Shown here: piece after piece, positions 3,969 to 50,773 of the stretch | Position numbering within the stretch: the stretch's first letter is position 1 | Layout: every line of letters begins with the position of its first letter | From: Mucilaginibacter rubeus | GTDB taxonomy: Bacteria; Bacteroidota; Bacteroidia; Sphingobacteriales; Sphingobacteriaceae | DNA: 64,000 nt | Direction: 5' to 3' | Assembly (NCBI RefSeq): GCF_014643835.1 | Contig: NZ_BMKD01000002.1 | Coordinates: 682,001-746,000 of the forward strand | Translations under genes and position numbers: made by a program | Notes under the pieces: model-generated | The model's input: only the letters and a program-made list of their open reading frames with translations | The model's database searches: none | What the model was told of the DNA's origin: nothing

Positions 3969-4000
3969 CAATGACCTAATGACGCAATGAAACAATGACT
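3969..4000. repeat. Tandem 8-bp-period array, four units
   Basis: Four units of the form yAATGAmn have ATG triplets at 3971, 3979, 3987 and 3995. They lie just before the ATG (4008) of the heptose kinase gene. The same unit recurs at 22028-22059 (reverse orientation) and around the cassette at 22949-23477. Confidence 0.8.
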
Positions 4001-4997: not shown

Positions 4998-5044
4998 GGC
5001 AGAGGTTAAAGGCCAATGGTTTGAATGTGCTTGCCCTAACCAAC

Positions 5045-5075
5045 CAATGAACTAATGAACCAGTGAACGAATGAA
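5045..5075. repeat. 8-bp-period array that contains the gmhA start codon
   Basis: Units of CnARTGAA repeat every 8 bp: ATG at 5047, ATG at 5055, GTG at 5063 and ATG at 5071, the last being the gmhA start. The first two ATGs open very short frames that stop at once (ATGAACTAA and ATGAACCAGTGA). The unit (ATGAAC) differs slightly from the ATGAC unit of the other arrays. Confidence 0.75.
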
Positions 5076-5637
5076 CGAAAAAATATTAAACGAACTTAAA
5101 GATCACCAGGATACGCTGCAAAGGGTAATTGATACGCTTGGCGGCGATATCGAGACAGCCTGTGATATGATTACCTCAACCATAAAAAACGGCAATAAAG
5201 TACTGCTGGCAGGTAACGGCGGCAGCGCTGCAGATGCACAACATATCGCAGCCGAACTTACCGGGCGTTATGTGAAAGATCGTAAACCTTTACCTGGCAT
5301 CGCCTTAACAGTTGATACTTCCGCGCTTACCTCTATCGCTAATGATTATGGTTACGAGCATGTATTTTCGCGCCAGCTGGAGGCCTTTGCCAGACCGGGC
5401 GACTTGTTCGTCGGCATTTCGACCAGTGGAAACAGTGCGGGGATCCTGGCGGCATTTGAGTCGGCTAAAAAACTGGAGGTTAAAACTTTAGGACTTTCGG
5501 GCAGGGATGGCGGTAAAATGAACGGACTTTGCGATTTGAATATTATCGTGCCATCAAACATTACCGCGCGTATCCAGGAAATGCATATCCTTATCGGGCA
5601 TATCCTATGTACCGCCGTTGATGACCTTTTTGATTAA
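5071..5637 (+). CDS. gmhA: Phosphoheptose isomerase GmhA
   Basis: Sedoheptulose 7-phosphate isomerase of 188 residues, the first step of ADP-heptose synthesis, cytoplasmic. It is a SIS-domain protein with the glycine/serine phosphate-binding loop LLAGNGGSAADAQHIAAEL, followed by TGRY and the second loop VGISTSGNSAGI. The conserved C-terminal QEMHILIGHILC contains the catalytic Glu/His region of the family. Length is normal for GmhA. It lies 73 bp after the kinase gene and before the adenylyltransferase, so the cluster order follows the pathway. The start codon lies inside a short tandem array. Confidence 0.95.
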   Translation: MNEKILNELKDHQDTLQRVIDTLGGDIETACDMITSTIKNGNKVLLAGNGGSAADAQHIAAELTGRYVKDRKPLPGIALTVDTSALTSIANDYGYEHVFSRQLEAFARPGDLFVGISTSGNSAGILAAFESAKKLEVKTLGLSGRDGGKMNGLCDLNIIVPSNITARIQEMHILIGHILCTAVDDLFD

Positions 5638-8602: not shown

Positions 8603-8632
8603 CGTTGTGTCCGAAAGTCAGAGAAGTCCGTA

Positions 8633-8746
8633 AGTCCGAAAGAAAAAATACTATTTGACCTTCATCAGTCGCCAGCGAGGCGAAACTATTTCAAATTTTA
8701 CGGAAAAAAATTACCGTTAAATAAGAATCTTACCGACTTTCGGACT
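8633..8746. repeat. Inverted repeat between sixA-like gene and dprA
   Basis: AGTCCGAAAG (8633-8642) and CTTTCGGACT (8737-8746) are perfect 10-bp arms. The left side also has two related AGTCCG units and a GTCCGAAAG copy at 8609-8617. It lies in a convergent gap with no gene. Confidence 0.6.
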
Positions 8747-8752
8747 CCCCAC

Positions 8753-9850
8753 TCAATTCACTCTATAAGTTTTCCCCGGCAGCGAACTGATATACCCTTG
8801 CATTTCCATATTAAGCAGGTTCATGGCCAGTTGGCTCATAGGCATATTAGCCCTTAAAGTAAGATCATCTATGGCAAGCGGCGTTTTATTCTGCTGCAAT
8901 ATCTCCATGATCAGCCGTTCATCTGCCGACAAATCAAAAGGCAGCATAAATTGCTCTGTAGGTTTATTGGCATCGTTCTTTTCCCAGCCAAGACTAAAAG
9001 CCAGATCGGCGGTGCAGGTGAGCAAGCTTGCTTTGTTATTACGGATTAGGAAGTTACATCCTTCAGAAAATTCATCACCCAATCTGCCCGGAAAAGCAAA
9101 AACATCCCGGTTATAGGAGTTGGCAATTTCGGCCGTGATGAGTGCACCTCCTTTTATACTGGCTTCAATCACCACGGTTGCATCGGCAATACCGGCAACT
9201 ATCCGGTTTCGCTGCGGAAAGTTTTCCCTGTCGGGGTTGGTGCCTGAAGGGTATTCGGATAGTAAGCCGCCGTTTTCGAGCATTTTATCGGCAGTGGCCC
9301 GGTTTTGAGCAGGATAAAGCCTGTCAAGCCCATGGCCAAGTACACCGATGGTTGGCACGTTTAGCTTTACACATTCTTTATGTGCCGCTACATCAATACC
9401 ATGTGCCAAACCACTTACTATTAATACATTATATTGCTGTAATTCCTCAACTAACTGGCGGCATAATTGCCTGCCATAATCGGTAGCGTTACGGGTGCCC
9501 ACTATACTAATAATGTGGGGCGGGTTAAGATCCATTTTGCCCTTCGCATAAAGCAGCACCGGTGAATCGTGGCAATTTTTTAAGCGCTTGGGGTAACGGG
9601 CATCTGTATAAAAAATAACATCGATATTGTGACCTTCTAAAAACTTCAGCTCCTTTTCGGCTTGCCTCAAAGCATCGTCAAAATCCCATTTTACAGCGCG
9701 TTTCTCACCTATTCCCGGAATCCTGGTCATTTTTTCGGGCGATGCATTAAACACTTCTTCTACGCTGCCAAGATATGCGATCAGTGACTTAGCCGCTACC
9801 GGCCCGAGGTTTTTAACAAAAGATAAAGCTACTTTATGGAGTAATGACAT
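8753..9850 (-). CDS. dprA: DNA-processing protein DprA
   Basis: Smf/DprA protein of 365 residues that binds incoming single-stranded DNA and loads RecA during natural transformation. An N-terminal helix-hairpin-helix-like region reads IPGIGEKRA. The Rossmann-like core shows ISIVGTRNATDYGRQLCRQL and VSGLAHGIDVAAH, then ENFPQRNRIVAG and a glycine-rich SIKGGALITAEIA. The C-terminal winged-helix part (LIMEILQQNKTPLAIDDLTL) is also present. Length is normal for the family. It suggests the organism may be competent, although no other com genes are visible here. Confidence 0.95.
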   Translation of the reverse strand: MSLLHKVALSFVKNLGPVAAKSLIAYLGSVEEVFNASPEKMTRIPGIGEKRAVKWDFDDALRQAEKELKFLEGHNIDVIFYTDARYPKRLKNCHDSPVLLYAKGKMDLNPPHIISIVGTRNATDYGRQLCRQLVEELQQYNVLIVSGLAHGIDVAAHKECVKLNVPTIGVLGHGLDRLYPAQNRATADKMLENGGLLSEYPSGTNPDRENFPQRNRIVAGIADATVVIEASIKGGALITAEIANSYNRDVFAFPGRLGDEFSEGCNFLIRNNKASLLTCTADLAFSLGWEKNDANKPTEQFMLPFDLSADERLIMEILQQNKTPLAIDDLTLRANMPMSQLAMNLLNMEMQGYISSLPGKTYRVN

Positions 9851-22027: not shown

Positions 22028-22059
22028 GTCATTGAGTCATTAGGTCATTAAGTCATTGC
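22028..22059. repeat. Tandem 8-bp-period array upstream of thyA
   Basis: GTCATT recurs at 22028, 22036, 22044 and 22052, an exact 8-bp period. It is the reverse complement of the unit at 3969-4000. It lies about 65 bp before the thyA start. Confidence 0.8.
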
Positions 22060-22123: not shown

Positions 22124-22945
22124 ATGAAACAGTATCTTGACCTGATGAGACATGTGATGGAAACCGGAGCGCAAAAGCATGACAGAACCGGCACCGGTAC
22201 AGTAAGTGTGTTTGGCTACCAGATGCGTTTCAATCTCAAGGATGGTTTCCCGATGGTAACCACCAAAAAACTGCACCTCAAATCTATCATCCATGAGCTC
22301 ATCTGGTTTTTGAGCGGCGACAGCAATATCCGCTACCTGAAAGAAAATGGCGTAAAAATATGGGACGAGTGGGCCGACGAAAATGGCGACCTTGGCCCCG
22401 TGTACGGCAAACAGTGGCGCTCGTGGCCTACACCAGATGGCGGTCATATCGACCAGATCAAACAGGTGGTGAACCAGCTTAAAAACAATCCCGACTCGCG
22501 CCGTATCATCGTGTCGGCCTGGAACGTTGCCGAGGTTAACCAGATGGCCCTGCCGCCATGCCATAGTTTGTTCCAGTTTTACGTAGAGCCCCCTAACCCC
22601 CTGAAGGGGGAACAAAAGGGAAAACTTTCGTGCCAGTTGTACCAACGCAGTGCAGATATTTTCCTTGGCGTTCCGTTCAACATAGCTTCCTATGCGTTGC
22701 TCACCATGATGATGGCACAGGTATGCGACCTTGATCTTGGCGACTTTATACACACTTTTGGTGATGCCCATTTGTACAACAACCATATGGACCAGGCGCG
22801 CCTGCAGCTAAGCCGCGATCCTCGCCCCCTGCCAACCATGAAAATCAATCCGGAGGTAAGAGATATCTTCTCATTCAAGTTTGAAGATTTCACTTTGGAG
22901 AATTATGATCCCTGGCCGCATATTAAGGCCGAAGTGGCGGTGTAG
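22124..22945 (+). CDS. thyA: Thymidylate synthase with a repeat-derived insertion
   Basis: ThyA of 273 residues, which makes dTMP from dUMP with methylene-tetrahydrofolate. The catalytic Cys lies at residue 146 in [12 protein letters not shown], the same number as in E. coli, followed by [20 protein letters not shown] and the dUMP-binding HLYNNHMDQ. Between FQFYV and GKLSC most family members have two residues. Here there are eleven ([11 protein letters not shown]), which accounts for the 9-residue excess over the E. coli protein. The DNA of this insert (22588-22612) is a palindromic repeat. It sits in a turn between strands, so folding is probably tolerated. Confidence 0.95.
22588..22612. 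repeat. Palindromic repeat inside thyA
   Basis: The core CCCCCT-GA-AGGGGG (22597-22610) is preceded by a further CCCCCTAA. This looks like the C/G-rich interspersed repeats common between genes in Bacteroidota, but here it is read as protein. Confidence 0.7.
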
Positions 22946-22948
22946 TTT

Positions 22949-23477
22949 GGTCATTTGCTTCGCGTCATTGGGTCATTAAGTCATTTTTTGCTTGTCCTGC
23001 TTTTAGCTGTCCTAATCTTATCATGAGTAATAGAATTGAAGAACTTGAAGTGTATAATCTTTCAGAAGCATTTTCCGACAGGGTTTGGTTTATAGTGGCT
23101 AAATGGGAATACTTTGCTAAAGACACTTTGGGTAAACAAATTGTTCGCTCATCTGATTCGATTGGTGCAAACATTGCTGAAGGATTTGGACGCTATCATT
23201 ACAAGGAGAATAAGAACTTCTGCTATTTTAGCCGCGGATCAGTAATTGAAACCAAAGGTTGGCTCAAAAAGGCAAATACGAGAAGCCTGATCAATGACGA
23301 CGAATATCAATCGCTGCTCCGGGAATTAGAAACAATTCACGTAAAATTAAACATCTATATCAAATTCATTGGGAAAGGCAATGCATAACTACAAGTCAAA
23401 AAATGACTCAATGACGCGAAGTAAAATGATGCAAAGCAAAATGACACGAAGCAAATGACGCAATGACTTAATGACCA
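22949..23477. mobile_element. Putative cassette: four-helix-bundle gene between inverted 8-bp-period arrays
   Basis: The left array (22949-22994) carries GTCATT at 22950, 22964, 22972 and 22980. The right array (23392-23477) carries AATGAC at 23402, 23410, 23440, 23454, 23462 and 23470 plus AATGAT at 23425. The left arm's reverse complement matches the start of the right arm closely, including CAATGACGCGAAG. The element begins 4 bp after the thyA stop and ends 7 bp before the folA start, so it fills exactly what would be the thyA-folA junction. Mobility is inferred; no transposase is inside. Confidence 0.5.
23023..23388 (+). CDS. Four-helix-bundle protein (23S rRNA intervening-sequence protein family)
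   Basis: A 121-residue protein of the S23/IVP family, which is a helical bundle. Typical family parts are IEELEVYNLSEAFSDRVWFI, LGKQIVRSSDSIGANIAEGF and the G-R-Y/F pair that follows, and NFCYFSRGSVIETKGWLKKA. First found in spacers inside 23S rRNA genes, these proteins occur as scattered single genes in Bacteroidota, and their molecular role is not settled. A related fold (Avd) serves diversity-generating retroelements, but no reverse transcriptase or repeat pair is here. The gene sits between thyA and folA and is bracketed by inverted short arrays. Confidence 0.88.
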   Translation: MSNRIEELEVYNLSEAFSDRVWFIVAKWEYFAKDTLGKQIVRSSDSIGANIAEGFGRYHYKENKNFCYFSRGSVIETKGWLKKANTRSLINDDEYQSLLRELETIHVKLNIYIKFIGKGNA

Positions 23478-23483
23478 AATAAA

Positions 23484-23966
23484 ATGATTTTATCCATCAT
23501 CGTAGCCATAGCCAAAAACCACGCTATCGGTAAAGACAATAAATTACTCTGGTATTTGCCTAATGATCTGAAGCATTTTAAAGATGTTACTACCGGGCAT
23601 ACCGTGATCATGGGCCGTAAAACTTTTGATTCGGTTGGTAAGCCCTTGCCCAAACGCCGCAACATTGTTATTACCCGGCAGGCCATCAGTATTGAAGGTT
23701 GCGAGGTAGTACCATCCATTGAAGCGGCTATTGAGCTTTGCAAGGCCGAGGACGAAGTTTTTATTGTTGGCGGAGCTGAGATCTACCGGCAGGCTATTCC
23801 CTTTACAAACCGCATATATCTCACCATTATCGACCAGGATTTTGAAGGCGATACCTTCTTCCCGGAATTAAATCCTGATGAATGGCAGGAAACAGATCGT
23901 GAAGATTTTGAGCCCGACGAAAAAAACAAGTATAAATATTCTTTTATCACACTTGTGCGGCGCTAA
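23484..23966 (+). CDS. folA: Dihydrofolate reductase
   Basis: DHFR of 160 residues, which reduces dihydrofolate formed by thymidylate synthase. Seen: MILSIIVAIAKNHAIGKDN, LLWYLPNDLKHFKDVTTGHT, VIMGRKTFDSVGKPLP and VFIVGGAEIYRQAI, all standard DHFR motifs. The acidic active-site residue is Asp of LPNDLKHF. Length is normal. It is normally next to thyA; here the four-helix-bundle cassette lies between them, with 7 bp between the right array and the ATG. Confidence 0.95.
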   Translation: MILSIIVAIAKNHAIGKDNKLLWYLPNDLKHFKDVTTGHTVIMGRKTFDSVGKPLPKRRNIVITRQAISIEGCEVVPSIEAAIELCKAEDEVFIVGGAEIYRQAIPFTNRIYLTIIDQDFEGDTFFPELNPDEWQETDREDFEPDEKNKYKYSFITLVRR

Positions 23967-27312: not shown

Positions 27313-28626
27313 ATGAACACATCAAATAATTCAAAATTTCCACTTGTAGTGATCGTAGGCGGCGGCTTCGGCGGCCTGCAGGTAGCAAAACAACTAAAGG
27401 ACAAACCTGTGGACGTTTTGATGCTGGATAAGCACAACTACCATACCTTTCAGCCCCTCTTATACCAGGTGGCTATGGGCAGCCTCGAATCGGAGTCGAT
27501 AGCTTTCTCATTAAGGAAAAATTTTGCCAGTCAAAAAAATTTCCGGTTTAGGATTGCCGAAGTAACCAGGGTGGATGCGGAAAATAACATACTCGAAACC
27601 ACCATAGGCAATATAGCTTATGATTACCTGGTGATAGCAACAGGCTCAACAACCAACTTTTTTGGCAATAAAGATATCGAGCATTATTCCATGCCGATGA
27701 AGTCGATCCCCGAGGCCTTGAACCTCCGGTACTCTATTTTGCAGAACATTGAAGAAGCCCTGCTTAAAGTTGGCAAGGCCGAGCGCGATCCCTACCTTAC
27801 TTTTGTACTGGTAGGCGCTGGCCCAACGGGTGTTGAGCTTGCAGGCTCACTGGCCGAGCTTCGTAATCACGTTTTGACTAAAGACTACCCTGAACTTAAA
27901 AAGGAGGACATGAAGGTGTACCTGGTCGATTTTTTACCGAAAGTACTTGGCCCCTTCTCCGACCAGGCATCCAACGCGGCCCGCACCTTCCTGACCAATA
28001 TGGGCGTTGAAGTGCTAACCGGCGTAAAGGTGGAAAGCTACGACGGCGAGGAAATCAAATTTGAAGGCGGTAAAAGCATTCGCACCAAAAATGTGATCTG
28101 GAGTGCCGGGGTTATGGGTGTTGTGCCCGATGGCTTTGATAAAGAGGTTATTGAACGTGGAAATAGAATAAAAGTGGATAGCGTTGGCCGCGTTGCCGGC
28201 TTTAACAACGTATTTGCAATTGGCGACGTTGCAGCCATGATCACCGATGAAACCCCTAAGGGACACCCCGGCGTAGCGCAGGTAGCCATACAAATGGGCC
28301 AGCACGTGGCTAAAAATATCATTCATATCATTAACGGCGAACAAACCTCACCGTTTAAGTATAACGATAAAGGCTCATTGGCAACTATTGGCCGCAATAA
28401 GGCGGTGGCCGATTTGGGCAAAGTAAAATTCCAGGGATTTTTTGCCTGGCTTGTATGGATGTTTGTGCACCTGATATCGCTTTTAGGCGGCCGTAATAAG
28501 GTGATTGTATTCATTAACTGGGTATCGAGCTATGTAACCTATAATGGCGGTACAAGGCTTATTATCCGCAAATTTGAGCGTGAAGGCTTAACTGAGGATC
28601 AGCATTTGCCTAATACAGTTGATTAG
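27313..28626 (+). CDS. NAD(P)/FAD-dependent oxidoreductase, type II NADH dehydrogenase-like
   Basis: A 437-residue flavoprotein resembling Ndh, which passes electrons from NADH to quinone without pumping protons. The FAD motif VVIVGGGFGGLQVAKQL begins at about residue 11. The dinucleotide motif VLVGAGPTGVELAGSLAEL lies in the middle, and FAIGDVAAM binds the flavin. The C-terminal KFQGFFAWLVWMFVHLISLL and the following IVFINWVSSYV form the membrane-associating tail typical of bacterial NDH-2. ATG 27313 is chosen because MNTSNNSKFPLVV begins right before the FAD motif. It stands alone. Confidence 0.9.
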   Translation: MNTSNNSKFPLVVIVGGGFGGLQVAKQLKDKPVDVLMLDKHNYHTFQPLLYQVAMGSLESESIAFSLRKNFASQKNFRFRIAEVTRVDAENNILETTIGNIAYDYLVIATGSTTNFFGNKDIEHYSMPMKSIPEALNLRYSILQNIEEALLKVGKAERDPYLTFVLVGAGPTGVELAGSLAELRNHVLTKDYPELKKEDMKVYLVDFLPKVLGPFSDQASNAARTFLTNMGVEVLTGVKVESYDGEEIKFEGGKSIRTKNVIWSAGVMGVVPDGFDKEVIERGNRIKVDSVGRVAGFNNVFAIGDVAAMITDETPKGHPGVAQVAIQMGQHVAKNIIHIINGEQTSPFKYNDKGSLATIGRNKAVADLGKVKFQGFFAWLVWMFVHLISLLGGRNKVIVFINWVSSYVTYNGGTRLIIRKFEREGLTEDQHLPNTVD

Positions 28627-28651
28627 CTTAAGTCCTGAATCTAAAGTCTCG

Positions 28652-28739
28652 GGTTTTAAGGCTTAAGTCAAAAGTTTTAAATTGGAAGTTTAGCGTTTTC
28701 TAAACTAAATTGATGACTTTTGACTTAAGACTTAAAACC
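28652..28739. repeat. Long inverted repeat (CTTAAGTCAAAAGT type)
   Basis: 24-bp arms at 28652-28675 and 28716-28739 differ at one base. Inside lies a second pair, AGTTTAG/CTAAACT. It fills the gap upstream of the HMG-CoA lyase-like gene. Confidence 0.85.
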
Positions 28740-28753
28740 TAAGATTTCCAAAA

Positions 28754-29605: not shown

Positions 29606-29631
29606 AAATAAAGATCATCCCCCCAATACCT

Positions 29632-29719
29632 CATTATAAGGTACGAAGCAATCCCCAATTAGCAGAGTAACTGTGCAAGTACCTCTGTATAGTTCGCGAT
29701 TGCTTCGTGCCTCGCAATG
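29632..29719. repeat. Interspersed palindrome, CATTGCGAGGTACGAAGC type, copy 2 (decayed)
   Basis: Left arm 29632-29656 (CATTATAAGGTACGAAGC, then AATCCCC) and right arm 29696-29719 (GCGATTGCTTCGTGCCTC, then GCAATG) are the same repeat as 20995-21070 with several changes. It lies between convergent genes. Confidence 0.8.
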
Positions 29720-29737
29720 ACGGTAACCGGATATTTT

Positions 29738-50529: not shown

Positions 50530-50599
50530 GATTTGGGGATGTTGGATTTCGGAACTTGAAATTCGGATTTTTCAATTTTCAATGGGAGATTTTCCTCGT

Positions 50600-50712
50600 C
50601 GTTGTTGGTGTTGTCACCAACAACTCCCGCTCCGTAGCTGCCGCTTGTTGGAGGTTTCGTCATTATAAAAGCTTAGGATACAAAAAAGTTGTTGGTGACA
50701 ACACAAACAACG
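50600..50712. repeat. Inverted repeat of GTTGTTGGTG type
   Basis: Arms of 26 bp at 50600-50625 and 50687-50712 differ at a single position. Outside them are further TTCGGATTTTT/AAAAATCCGAA-like words. It fills the convergent gap between moaE and moeB. Confidence 0.85.
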
Positions 50713-50773
50713 GCACAAACTTTCGATTCAAATTAAAAAAATCCGAAATCGAAATTCCGATATCCGAAATCAT

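What the first reader, a model, noticed from the sequence alone, without database searches (positions are those of the whole stretch)
22949..23477. Four-helix-bundle cassette bracketed by inverted 8-bp-period arrays, exactly filling the thyA-folA junction
Seen: GTCATT words on the left and AATGAC words on the right of a four-helix-bundle gene. The left arm (22949-22994) is nearly the reverse complement of the start of the right arm (23392-23433), sharing CAATGACGCGAAG and the A-run. The element starts 4 bp after the thyA stop and ends 7 bp before the folA start. Known: thyA and folA are often adjacent, and these bundle proteins occur as scattered single genes of unclear role. Inference: a small mobile or domesticated cassette in which the protein and the terminal arrays belong together, perhaps as a REP-like repeat plus its binding protein.
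Basis: partly seen in the sequence, partly recalled or inferred. Interest (0 to 1): 0.72.

Follow-up and report, generated by a model that had tools for sequence, protein, structure and literature searches.

The report
Four-helix gene between matching repeat arrays
A small bacterial gene of unknown role lies between two inward-facing arrays of short repeats, and many of its relatives in other bacteria do too, each gene subfamily with its own repeat word, which points to an undescribed kind of mobile or domesticated genetic cassette.

Summary
A PF05635 ("23S rRNA intervening sequence", four-helix-bundle, 4HB) gene at 23023-23388 fills the thyA-folA gap between inward-facing arrays of GTCATT units.

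It is one case of a general rule. In the nearest genus 90 of 113 PF05635 genes have inverted arms in their flanks, against 8 of 437 other genes; 17 of 20 did so in a second sample. Where a period is clear it is mostly 7 nt; arrays are about 31 nt. The word follows the protein, not the host: at 65% identity or more it is shared in 99 of 130 cross-phylum pairs, below 50% in about 1%. Gene-less array pairs are scattered through the genomes. At thyA-folA and metH-metF the gene comes and goes between relatives.

Best reading: a mobile, partly domesticated cassette whose Avd-like protein recognises its own arrays. It works like a REPIN/RAYT system but has no transposase. Binding and movement are not shown. 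One of two copy-number tests failed. My searches found no paper linking the two parts.

The parts
22946..22994 (+). left (5') array: four GTCATT units in 22950-22985 plus a T-run, inward-facing
23023..23388 (+). four-helix-bundle gene, PF05635/TIGR02436, 121 aa, under strong purifying selection (dN 0.025, dS 0.87 against the G026 copy)
23392..23477 (-). right (3') array: six AATGAC units in 23402-23475, inverted to the left array, inward-facing
22124..22945 (+). thyA (thymidylate synthase), left neighbour; host gene, not part of the cassette
23484..23966 (+). folA (dihydrofolate reductase), right neighbour; host gene, not part of the cassette
22028..22057 (+). third GTCATT array, upstream of thyA; at this site G001 also has GTCATT, while G117, G122, G053 and G026 have GTTCATT
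3970..3999 (-). AATGAC array in another intergenic space, with a degenerate array of a different word on its left (by eye)
5042..5079 (-). GTTCATT-word array just before a gene start
8603..8769 (.). gene-less inward-facing array pair (AGTCCGAA word, by eye); the same site in some relatives carries pairs with other words
28625..28749 (.). gene-less inward-facing array pair (CTTAAGTC-like word, by eye; right arm found by period)

Best explanation
The element is a small cassette: one gene for a PF05635 four-helix-bundle protein between two inward-facing arrays, each of about four to six copies of a 7- or 8-nt word. Shown: gene and arrays occur together in many bacterial groups; the word follows the protein clade and not the host; the word outlasts saturation of silent sites; the cassette is present or absent at the same junction in related species; gene-less array pairs are scattered through genomes. 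Inferred: the protein, which has the fold of the Avd pentamer of diversity-generating retroelements and of the 23S rRNA intervening-sequence proteins, recognises its own word in DNA or RNA; the arrays are its recognition ends; and the unit moves or copies its arrays with catalysis supplied by another enzyme, since the gene is small and matches no catalytic domain. The gene-less pairs would be its non-autonomous forms, as REPINs are for RAYT. Word changes at fixed sites suggest that arrays are rewritten in existing arrays as well as inserted anew. The position right after a stop codon and right before a start codon is probably what selection leaves. Least certain are the movement step and whether recognition is of DNA or RNA.
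For: Bracketing: 90 of 113 genus loci score 28 or more, against 0 of 113 Markov-shuffled, 39 of 452 permuted partners and 21 of 113 in direct orientation, and 8 of 437 other genes. By synteny and protein groups, 25 of 30. Second sample of 20 loci: 17 of 20. 30 loci from across the phylum: 11 of 30. Other phyla: 33 of 52. Plasmids, mostly cyanobacterial: 10 of 14. Word tracks protein: non-syntenic pairs from different genomes share the word in 62 of 5224 pairs below 55% identity, 61 of 102 at 65-70%, 136 of 158 at 70-80%, 10 of 10 above; paralogue pairs in one genome 1 of 40. Cross-phylum 99 of 130 pairs at 65% or more. Two deltaproteobacterial proteins 50 and 58% identical to the window's carry the same GTCATT word (L228 scores 36, L229 only 18, its arrays seen by eye). 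Non-syntenic same-word pairs at 65-80% identity have dS above 1 in 197 of 197. Arms of one cassette resemble each other more than arms of other same-clade cassettes in 73 of 92. Presence or absence at one site. Unlike 4HB subfamilies with different words at the metH-metF junction (gene names confirmed). Gene-less inward pairs: 36 of 60 pattern loci, against 2 outward. GTCATT arrays occur in 17 of 23 genomes with the window-clade gene and 13 of 38 without (p 0.0037); the unrelated GAGATDT word shows no such link (p 1). Fold: 2gsc and 2rld first (E below 0.001), then Avd 4dwl (TM 0.73-0.84, probability 1.00 but E 0.05-0.3).
Against: For the word GAGATDT, array number is unrelated to its cognate gene (6 of 6 genomes with the gene, 38 of 55 without; p 0.17), and the genomes richest in it (G084, G083, G098) lack the gene. 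Array sites persist while words switch, so insertion of whole cassettes is not the whole story. No target-site duplication and no clean, array-free donor/recipient pair was found for a 4HB cassette. No enzyme is encoded. Strong purifying selection on the gene is unusual for a purely selfish element. 23 of 113 genus loci, 19 of 30 phylum loci and 19 of 52 in other phyla miss the score threshold; a clear period stands out in at least one flank in only 70 of 113 genus loci and in both in 37. Some misses show decayed arrays by eye, others none (plasmid locus L174). L190 (Acidobacteria) is 66-81% identical to array-bearing relatives but shares no word; it is in 18 of the 31 cross-phylum misses. Rehm et al. 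found few paired repeats in Nostoc PCC 7120 and no general tie of the repeats to mobile elements (PMC4692102, passages).
Confidence: 0.6

Rival explanations
1. The arrays are independent short repeat elements that live between genes, and the 4HB gene is a passenger that happens to sit inside array pairs. Gene and array travel together only by linkage.
For: Of 60 pattern loci only 4 enclose a 4HB gene; for GAGATDT, copy number is independent of the gene; words change at fixed sites.
Against: Only 8 of 437 other genes are bracketed, and three of those eight are thyA beside this same site. The word follows the 4HB clade across sites, genomes and phyla beyond saturation of silent sites. The gene is under strong constraint.
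Confidence: 0.2
2. RNA-level element, like the 23S rRNA intervening sequences: the arms pair in the transcript, RNase III cuts the stem and frees the 4HB mRNA, which makes insertion between co-transcribed genes tolerable. The protein may bind the stem.
For: The same protein family lies between complementary termini in IVS elements (PMC4990558, passages). Cassettes sit between co-directional gene pairs, including cas genes on cyanobacterial plasmids.
Against: Mismatches between arms show no excess of G.U-compatible over A.C changes (66 against 72). Arms keep the word but not a register-exact complement.
Confidence: 0.13
3. Cis-acting regulatory unit only: the arrays are operator or 5'-UTR sites through which the 4HB oligomer controls its own operon, without mobility.
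For: Arrays lie next to start and stop codons; the gene is under strong constraint. Heptamer repeats upstream of starts were proposed as regulator sites in Beggiatoaceae (PMC4679880, passages).
Against: Presence/absence at the same junctions in close relatives, unlike cassettes at one site, and dispersed gene-less pairs.
Confidence: 0.07

Closest known systems
REPtron: RAYT (TnpA-REP) gene with flanking inverted REPs, and REPIN doublets (features recalled; papers seen only as the listing)
   Same: One small gene between inverted repeats; dispersed gene-less inverted doublets; repeat sequence specific to the protein clade.
   Different: The protein is a four-helix bundle whose only Pfam match is PF05635, not a Y1/HUH transposase; repeats are arrays of 7-8 nt words, not single palindromes; up to 15 PF05635 copies per genome.
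23S rRNA intervening sequence (IVS) with S23p/IVP open reading frame
   Same: Same Pfam family (PF05635) between complementary ends.
   Different: Lies in a protein-gene junction, not in rRNA; ends are word arrays, and the word is clade-specific.
Diversity-generating retroelement accessory protein Avd
   Same: Fold (4dwl and 8ub7 follow the PF05635 structures in the PDB search).
   Different: 6-9% sequence identity; in the window the neighbours are thyA and folA, with no reverse transcriptase or template/variable repeat next to it.
Heptamer tandem repeats: cyanobacterial STRR (recalled) and tRNA-Leu(UAA) intron P6b repeats, Xanthomonas GGGAATC and Nostoc GGGGA(T/C)T repeats, TAACTGA repeats
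   Same: 7-nt units, mostly intergenic; in Xanthomonas most often four units per array and 70 (Xcc) and 75 (Xac) convergent pairs (PMC4692102, passages).
   Different: None of these papers ties the repeats to PF05635 genes in the passages seen; here that tie is the finding. In Nostoc PCC 7120 the same paper found only a few pairs.

Membership tests
PF05635 / TIGR02436 four-helix-bundle protein | score above curated cut-off | tested here: met
   94.6 bits vs 33.8; 91.1 vs 24
PF05635 / TIGR02436 four-helix-bundle protein | four-helix fold of 2gsc/2rld | tested here: met
   model pLDDT 93.4; 2gsc TM 0.82-0.92, best E 8e-6
23S rRNA IVS element | S23p ORF between complementary ends | tested here: met
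   definition from PMC4990558
23S rRNA IVS element | insertion inside 23S rRNA | tested here: not met
   lies between thyA and folA
23S rRNA IVS element | excision by RNase III | not testable with these tools
   needs RNA; arm mismatches give no sign of selection on an RNA stem
REPtron (RAYT + REP) | Y1/HUH tyrosine transposase (RAYT) | tested here: not met
   the only Pfam match is PF05635
REPtron (RAYT + REP) | gene flanked by inverted repeats that also occur as dispersed doublets | tested here: met
REPtron (RAYT + REP) | repeat abundance tied to presence of cognate gene | tested here: inconclusive
   held for GTCATT (p 0.0037), not for GAGATDT (p 0.17)
DGR (Avd) | reverse transcriptase, TR and VR beside the gene | tested here: not met
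   immediate neighbours are thyA and folA; an RT elsewhere in the genome was not tested
Insertion sequence / MITE | transposase in the autonomous copy | tested here: not met
   within the junction the 4HB ORF and the overlapping ORF 22965-23174 on - match no transposase; no other ORF was scanned
Insertion sequence / MITE | target-site duplication | tested here: inconclusive
   no clean empty/filled pair for a 4HB cassette; gaps hold other elements
Heptamer simple-sequence repeats (STRR-like) | tandem 7-nt units | tested here: met
   period 7 in 96 of 107 flanks with a clear period, out of 226 flanks of the genus set; the window itself has period 8

The most novel reading that the evidence does not exclude
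Heptamer arrays across bacteria, including the cyanobacterial short tandem repeats and the paired GGGAATC arrays of xanthomonads, are the recognition ends and copied products of PF05635 proteins. That would be a widespread class of word-specific repeat systems in which an Avd-like pentamer reads one word per clade and, with a reverse transcriptase or other enzyme in trans, inserts or rewrites arrays at existing sites. The 23S rRNA intervening sequences would be one branch of it.
Probability: 0.25. Interest if true: 0.95.

Novelty: categorically new. Interest (0 to 1): 0.82.

Why it matters
PF05635 is found in 146 of 149 genomes of the nearest genus and 232 of 296 across the phylum, and its proteins have no known function (PMC4990558, passage). 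[quoted passage not shown] If each array word has a cognate protein, both puzzles become testable at once: bind the protein to its word, swap words, delete the gene and watch the arrays. It would also give a natural set of protein-word pairs from which to read a recognition code.

Tried and rejected
RNA-stem selection between arms: tested by G.U-compatible against mirror mismatches, no signal. REPIN-style copy-number test with a second word: failed. Phage or plasmid cargo: the window protein matches 0 of 50,697 phage and 6 of 72,556 plasmid records; with an XCC0516 fragment as query 30 plasmid records match, mostly cyanobacterial, so plasmids are not excluded as carriers. Defence-system and phage families: none. 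Xanthomonas prediction (XCC0516 gene between GGGAATC arrays): could not be tested; no Xanthomonas record is named among the 30 plasmid rows, and the 11 viral contigs found carry no host name. Those viral contigs score 28 or more in 4 of 11 (L353, L356, L357, L359). The strand polarity of arms (G above C in 87 of 90; 30 of 33 in other phyla and 10 of 10 on plasmids) is a property of inward-facing pairs, not of the gene's orientation: an inverted pair reads the same from either strand, and in L260 the gene lies on the other strand. The score threshold of 28 was set after the pilot.

Left out before counts: L003 (broken G001 copy) and L004 (a thyA locus) from the 113-locus set; listed places that I did not fetch, among them G104:C559 and G115:C111 near contig ends and the places after G136:C122; L186 for lack of flank, so 52 of 53; also L177, L185, L198, L204, L205 and L210 (edge, frame or no phylum label); L368 (Gemmatirosa, score 61) and the 11 viral contigs are not in the 14-plasmid count, and only 14 of the plasmid records found are in it. 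In one search the gene counted as present at 63% identity or more for the window clade (23 genomes, one of them, G045, by a fragment) and at 79% or more for the second clade (6 genomes). An early note gave 12 of 30 for the phylum set; the recount is 11 of 30. One search stopped on a script error and was rerun.

Full report
What is there. The thyA-folA junction (22946-23483) holds a 121-residue four-helix-bundle gene (23023-23388) between a left array of GTCATT units (22950-22985) and a right array of AATGAC units (23402-23475), inverted to each other. The protein matches PF05635 at 94.6 bits and TIGR02436 at 91.1 bits. A further GTCATT array lies upstream of thyA (22028-22057), and other arrays or array pairs lie at 3970-3999, 5042-5079, 8603-8769 and 28625-28749.

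The window's own assembly is not held; the nearest genome, G001, shares 30% of sampled words and aligns at 92.9% over most of the window. G001 has the same junction with the gene broken. Its two other PF05635 genes have inverted arms too, but of other words. That led to the general test.

General test. PF05635 matches 146 of 149 genomes of the genus. I took flanks of 113 loci: two of G001, the 30 loci handed out, 80 of the other listed places and the window. These are the strongest matches, not a random sample. The best local alignment of the 300-bp 5' flank to the reverse complement of the 3' flank scores 28 or more in 90 of 113; direct orientation 21 of 113, permuted partners 39 of 452, Markov shuffles 0 of 113, other window genes 0 of 60. 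In a wider control, seven homologous stretches of 60-67 kb (so not independent), 8 of 437 non-4HB genes reach 28; three of these are thyA itself (265-270 of 274 residues identical to the window's), between GTTCATT arrays, four show other repeats and one is unclear. Grouped by synteny and protein, 25 of 30 groups of the 113 have a median of 28 or more. A second sample of 20 loci, picked by me from weaker matches, gives 17 of 20 with median 52. A clear period (above the 99% null) is seen in at least one flank in 70 of 113 loci and in both in 37; of the 107 periodic flanks 96 have period 7, 8 have 8 and 3 have 9, and array length has a median of about 31 nt.

Wider range. In 30 loci from across the phylum 11 reach 28 (direct 3), with heptamer words visible in more. 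In 52 loci from Nostocales, Deltaproteobacteria, Acidobacteria, Verrucomicrobia, Nitrospirota, Chloroflexi and others, found with a Nostoc protein, 33 reach 28 (direct 10), with periods 7 and 8. Of 14 plasmid loci, 13 of them cyanobacterial, 10 reach 28. Many of the non-Nostoc loci are metagenome bins on short contigs, so single phylum labels may be wrong. Pseudanabaena L174 shows no arrays.

Word follows protein. Among pairs from different genomes without synteny, the arm word is shared in 62 of 5224 pairs below 55% identity, 5 of 78 at 55-60, 15 of 59 at 60-65, 61 of 102 at 65-70, 136 of 158 at 70-80 and 10 of 10 above. Paralogue pairs within one genome share it in 1 of 40. Between phyla: 67 of 6544 pairs below 50%, 11 of 97 at 50-55, 41 of 87 at 55-65, 99 of 130 at 65 or more. 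The top bin comes wholly from the loci found with the Nostoc protein, with GGGGAAA-like words whose low complexity may ease matching; 18 of its 31 misses involve one locus without arrays, L190. The window's clade gives a separate case: two deltaproteobacterial proteins 50 and 58% identical to it carry GTCATT arrays. For the 197 same-word non-syntenic pairs at 65-80% identity in the genus, dS is above 1 in all and third-position identity at shared residues has a median of 0.48, so the word is held longer than silent sites. Arms of one cassette match each other better than arms of other same-clade cassettes in 73 of 92.

Presence, absence and turnover. At thyA-folA, 8 of 31 entries examined (29 best-matching relatives of 145 genomes with thyA, G001 and the window) have the 4HB gene, broken in some (L004, L121, L135); five others have an inward GTTCATT pair without the gene, including the closest relative by thyA, G117; one has no folA downstream; the rest show single or mixed arms, other inserts or short gaps. 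At metH-metF (names confirmed), 8 of 30 examined loci have a 4HB gene and 22 do not; in the genus set, unlike 4HB subfamilies with different words occupy that site. Against six relatives over about 60 kb, array sites are often kept in place while the word differs: GTCATT against GTTCATT upstream of thyA, AGTCCGAA against AGTCGTA and AGTCTTA at 8603-8769 (by eye). So arrays are rewritten or replaced at old sites, not only inserted at new ones.

Dispersed pairs and the copy-number test. GTCATTDDGTCATTDDGTCATT occurs in 30 of 61 genomes and GAGATDTGAGATDTGAGA in 44 of 61; the reversed control pattern gave 0 for the first and 4 hits in one genome for the second. Of 60 pattern loci, within about 200 bp of the hit, 36 are inward pairs 15-120 bp apart, 2 outward, 21 single and 1 mixed; in 4 the wider array pair encloses a 4HB gene. 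GTCATT arrays are commoner where the window-clade gene is present (17 of 23 against 13 of 38, p 0.0037), and the other word is not (p 1). For GAGATDT and its clade the link fails (6 of 6 against 38 of 55, p 0.17; rank test p 0.89). None of these tests corrects for kinship among genomes.

Protein. The window gene is under strong constraint: dN 0.025 and dS 0.87 against G026, dN 0.032 and dS 1.43 against G032. The AlphaFold model (pLDDT 93.4) matches 2gsc and 2rld first and then, with E above 0.05 but TM 0.73-0.84, Avd of the Bordetella phage retroelement, 4dwl, and the retroelement RNP 8ub7, in line with the homology noted in PMC10053308 (passages).

How it works. I commit to a mobile, partly domesticated cassette whose protein recognises its own word, with catalysis in trans (0.6). 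An oligomeric ring that meets an array of equal units recalls TRAP and its repeats; that is recall and analogy only. RNA-stem excision as in IVS elements is possible but the arms show no G.U preference (66 against 72). The passenger reading is the strongest rival, because few dispersed arrays enclose the gene and one word has no tie to its gene.

What is known. IVS elements place the same protein family between complementary ends in 23S rRNA (PMC4990558, passages). Heptamer repeats are described in Beggiatoaceae, cyanobacteria and some Bacteroidetes (PMC4679880, abstract and passages), in Nostoc tRNA-Leu introns (PMC3488679, passages), and in Xanthomonas and Nostoc, most often four units and 70-75 convergent pairs per Xanthomonas genome, but few pairs in Nostoc and no general tie to mobile elements (PMC4692102, passages). 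The solved PF05635 protein 2gsc is from Xanthomonas campestris, so its gene should lie between GGGAATC arrays; I could not test this. Searches for a link in print between PF05635 proteins and such arrays found none; the library lacks most subscription journals and bioRxiv. REPIN/RAYT comparisons rest on the listing and recall.

Noticed in passing
22589-22613: A CCCCCCTAACCCCCTGAAGGGGGAAC repeat element lies in frame inside thyA; G001 thyA has different sequence there, and similar CCCCCT..AAGGGGGA elements fill metH-metF gaps of other genomes.
   Followed up: no
29607-29733: Inverted element with a CCTCGCAATGACG end and a GGTACGAAGCAATC core; fuller GTCATTGCGAGG copies fill metH-metF and thyA-folA gaps in relatives.
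   Followed up: partly
50594-50726: A 133-bp insertion relative to G117 with inverted GTTGTTGGTG-type ends and an empty site in G117.
   Followed up: partly
12792 (insert in G117, L330-L333): G117 carries a 1.9-kb insert here; its end resembles a group II intron, by recall only.
   Followed up: no
L361, L363, L367: On cyanobacterial plasmids PF05635 genes sit between cas genes (cas10 and a Cmr3-family gene; cas6 and cas4), with arrays in both flanks.
   Followed up: partly
L130, L269, L272: Some thyA-folA junctions carry long, nearly perfect GTCATTGG arrays of about 8 to 13 units, far longer than usual.
   Followed up: no
G117, G053, G122 thyA loci: thyA itself is bracketed by near-identical inward GTTCATT arrays in three relatives.
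   Followed up: partly
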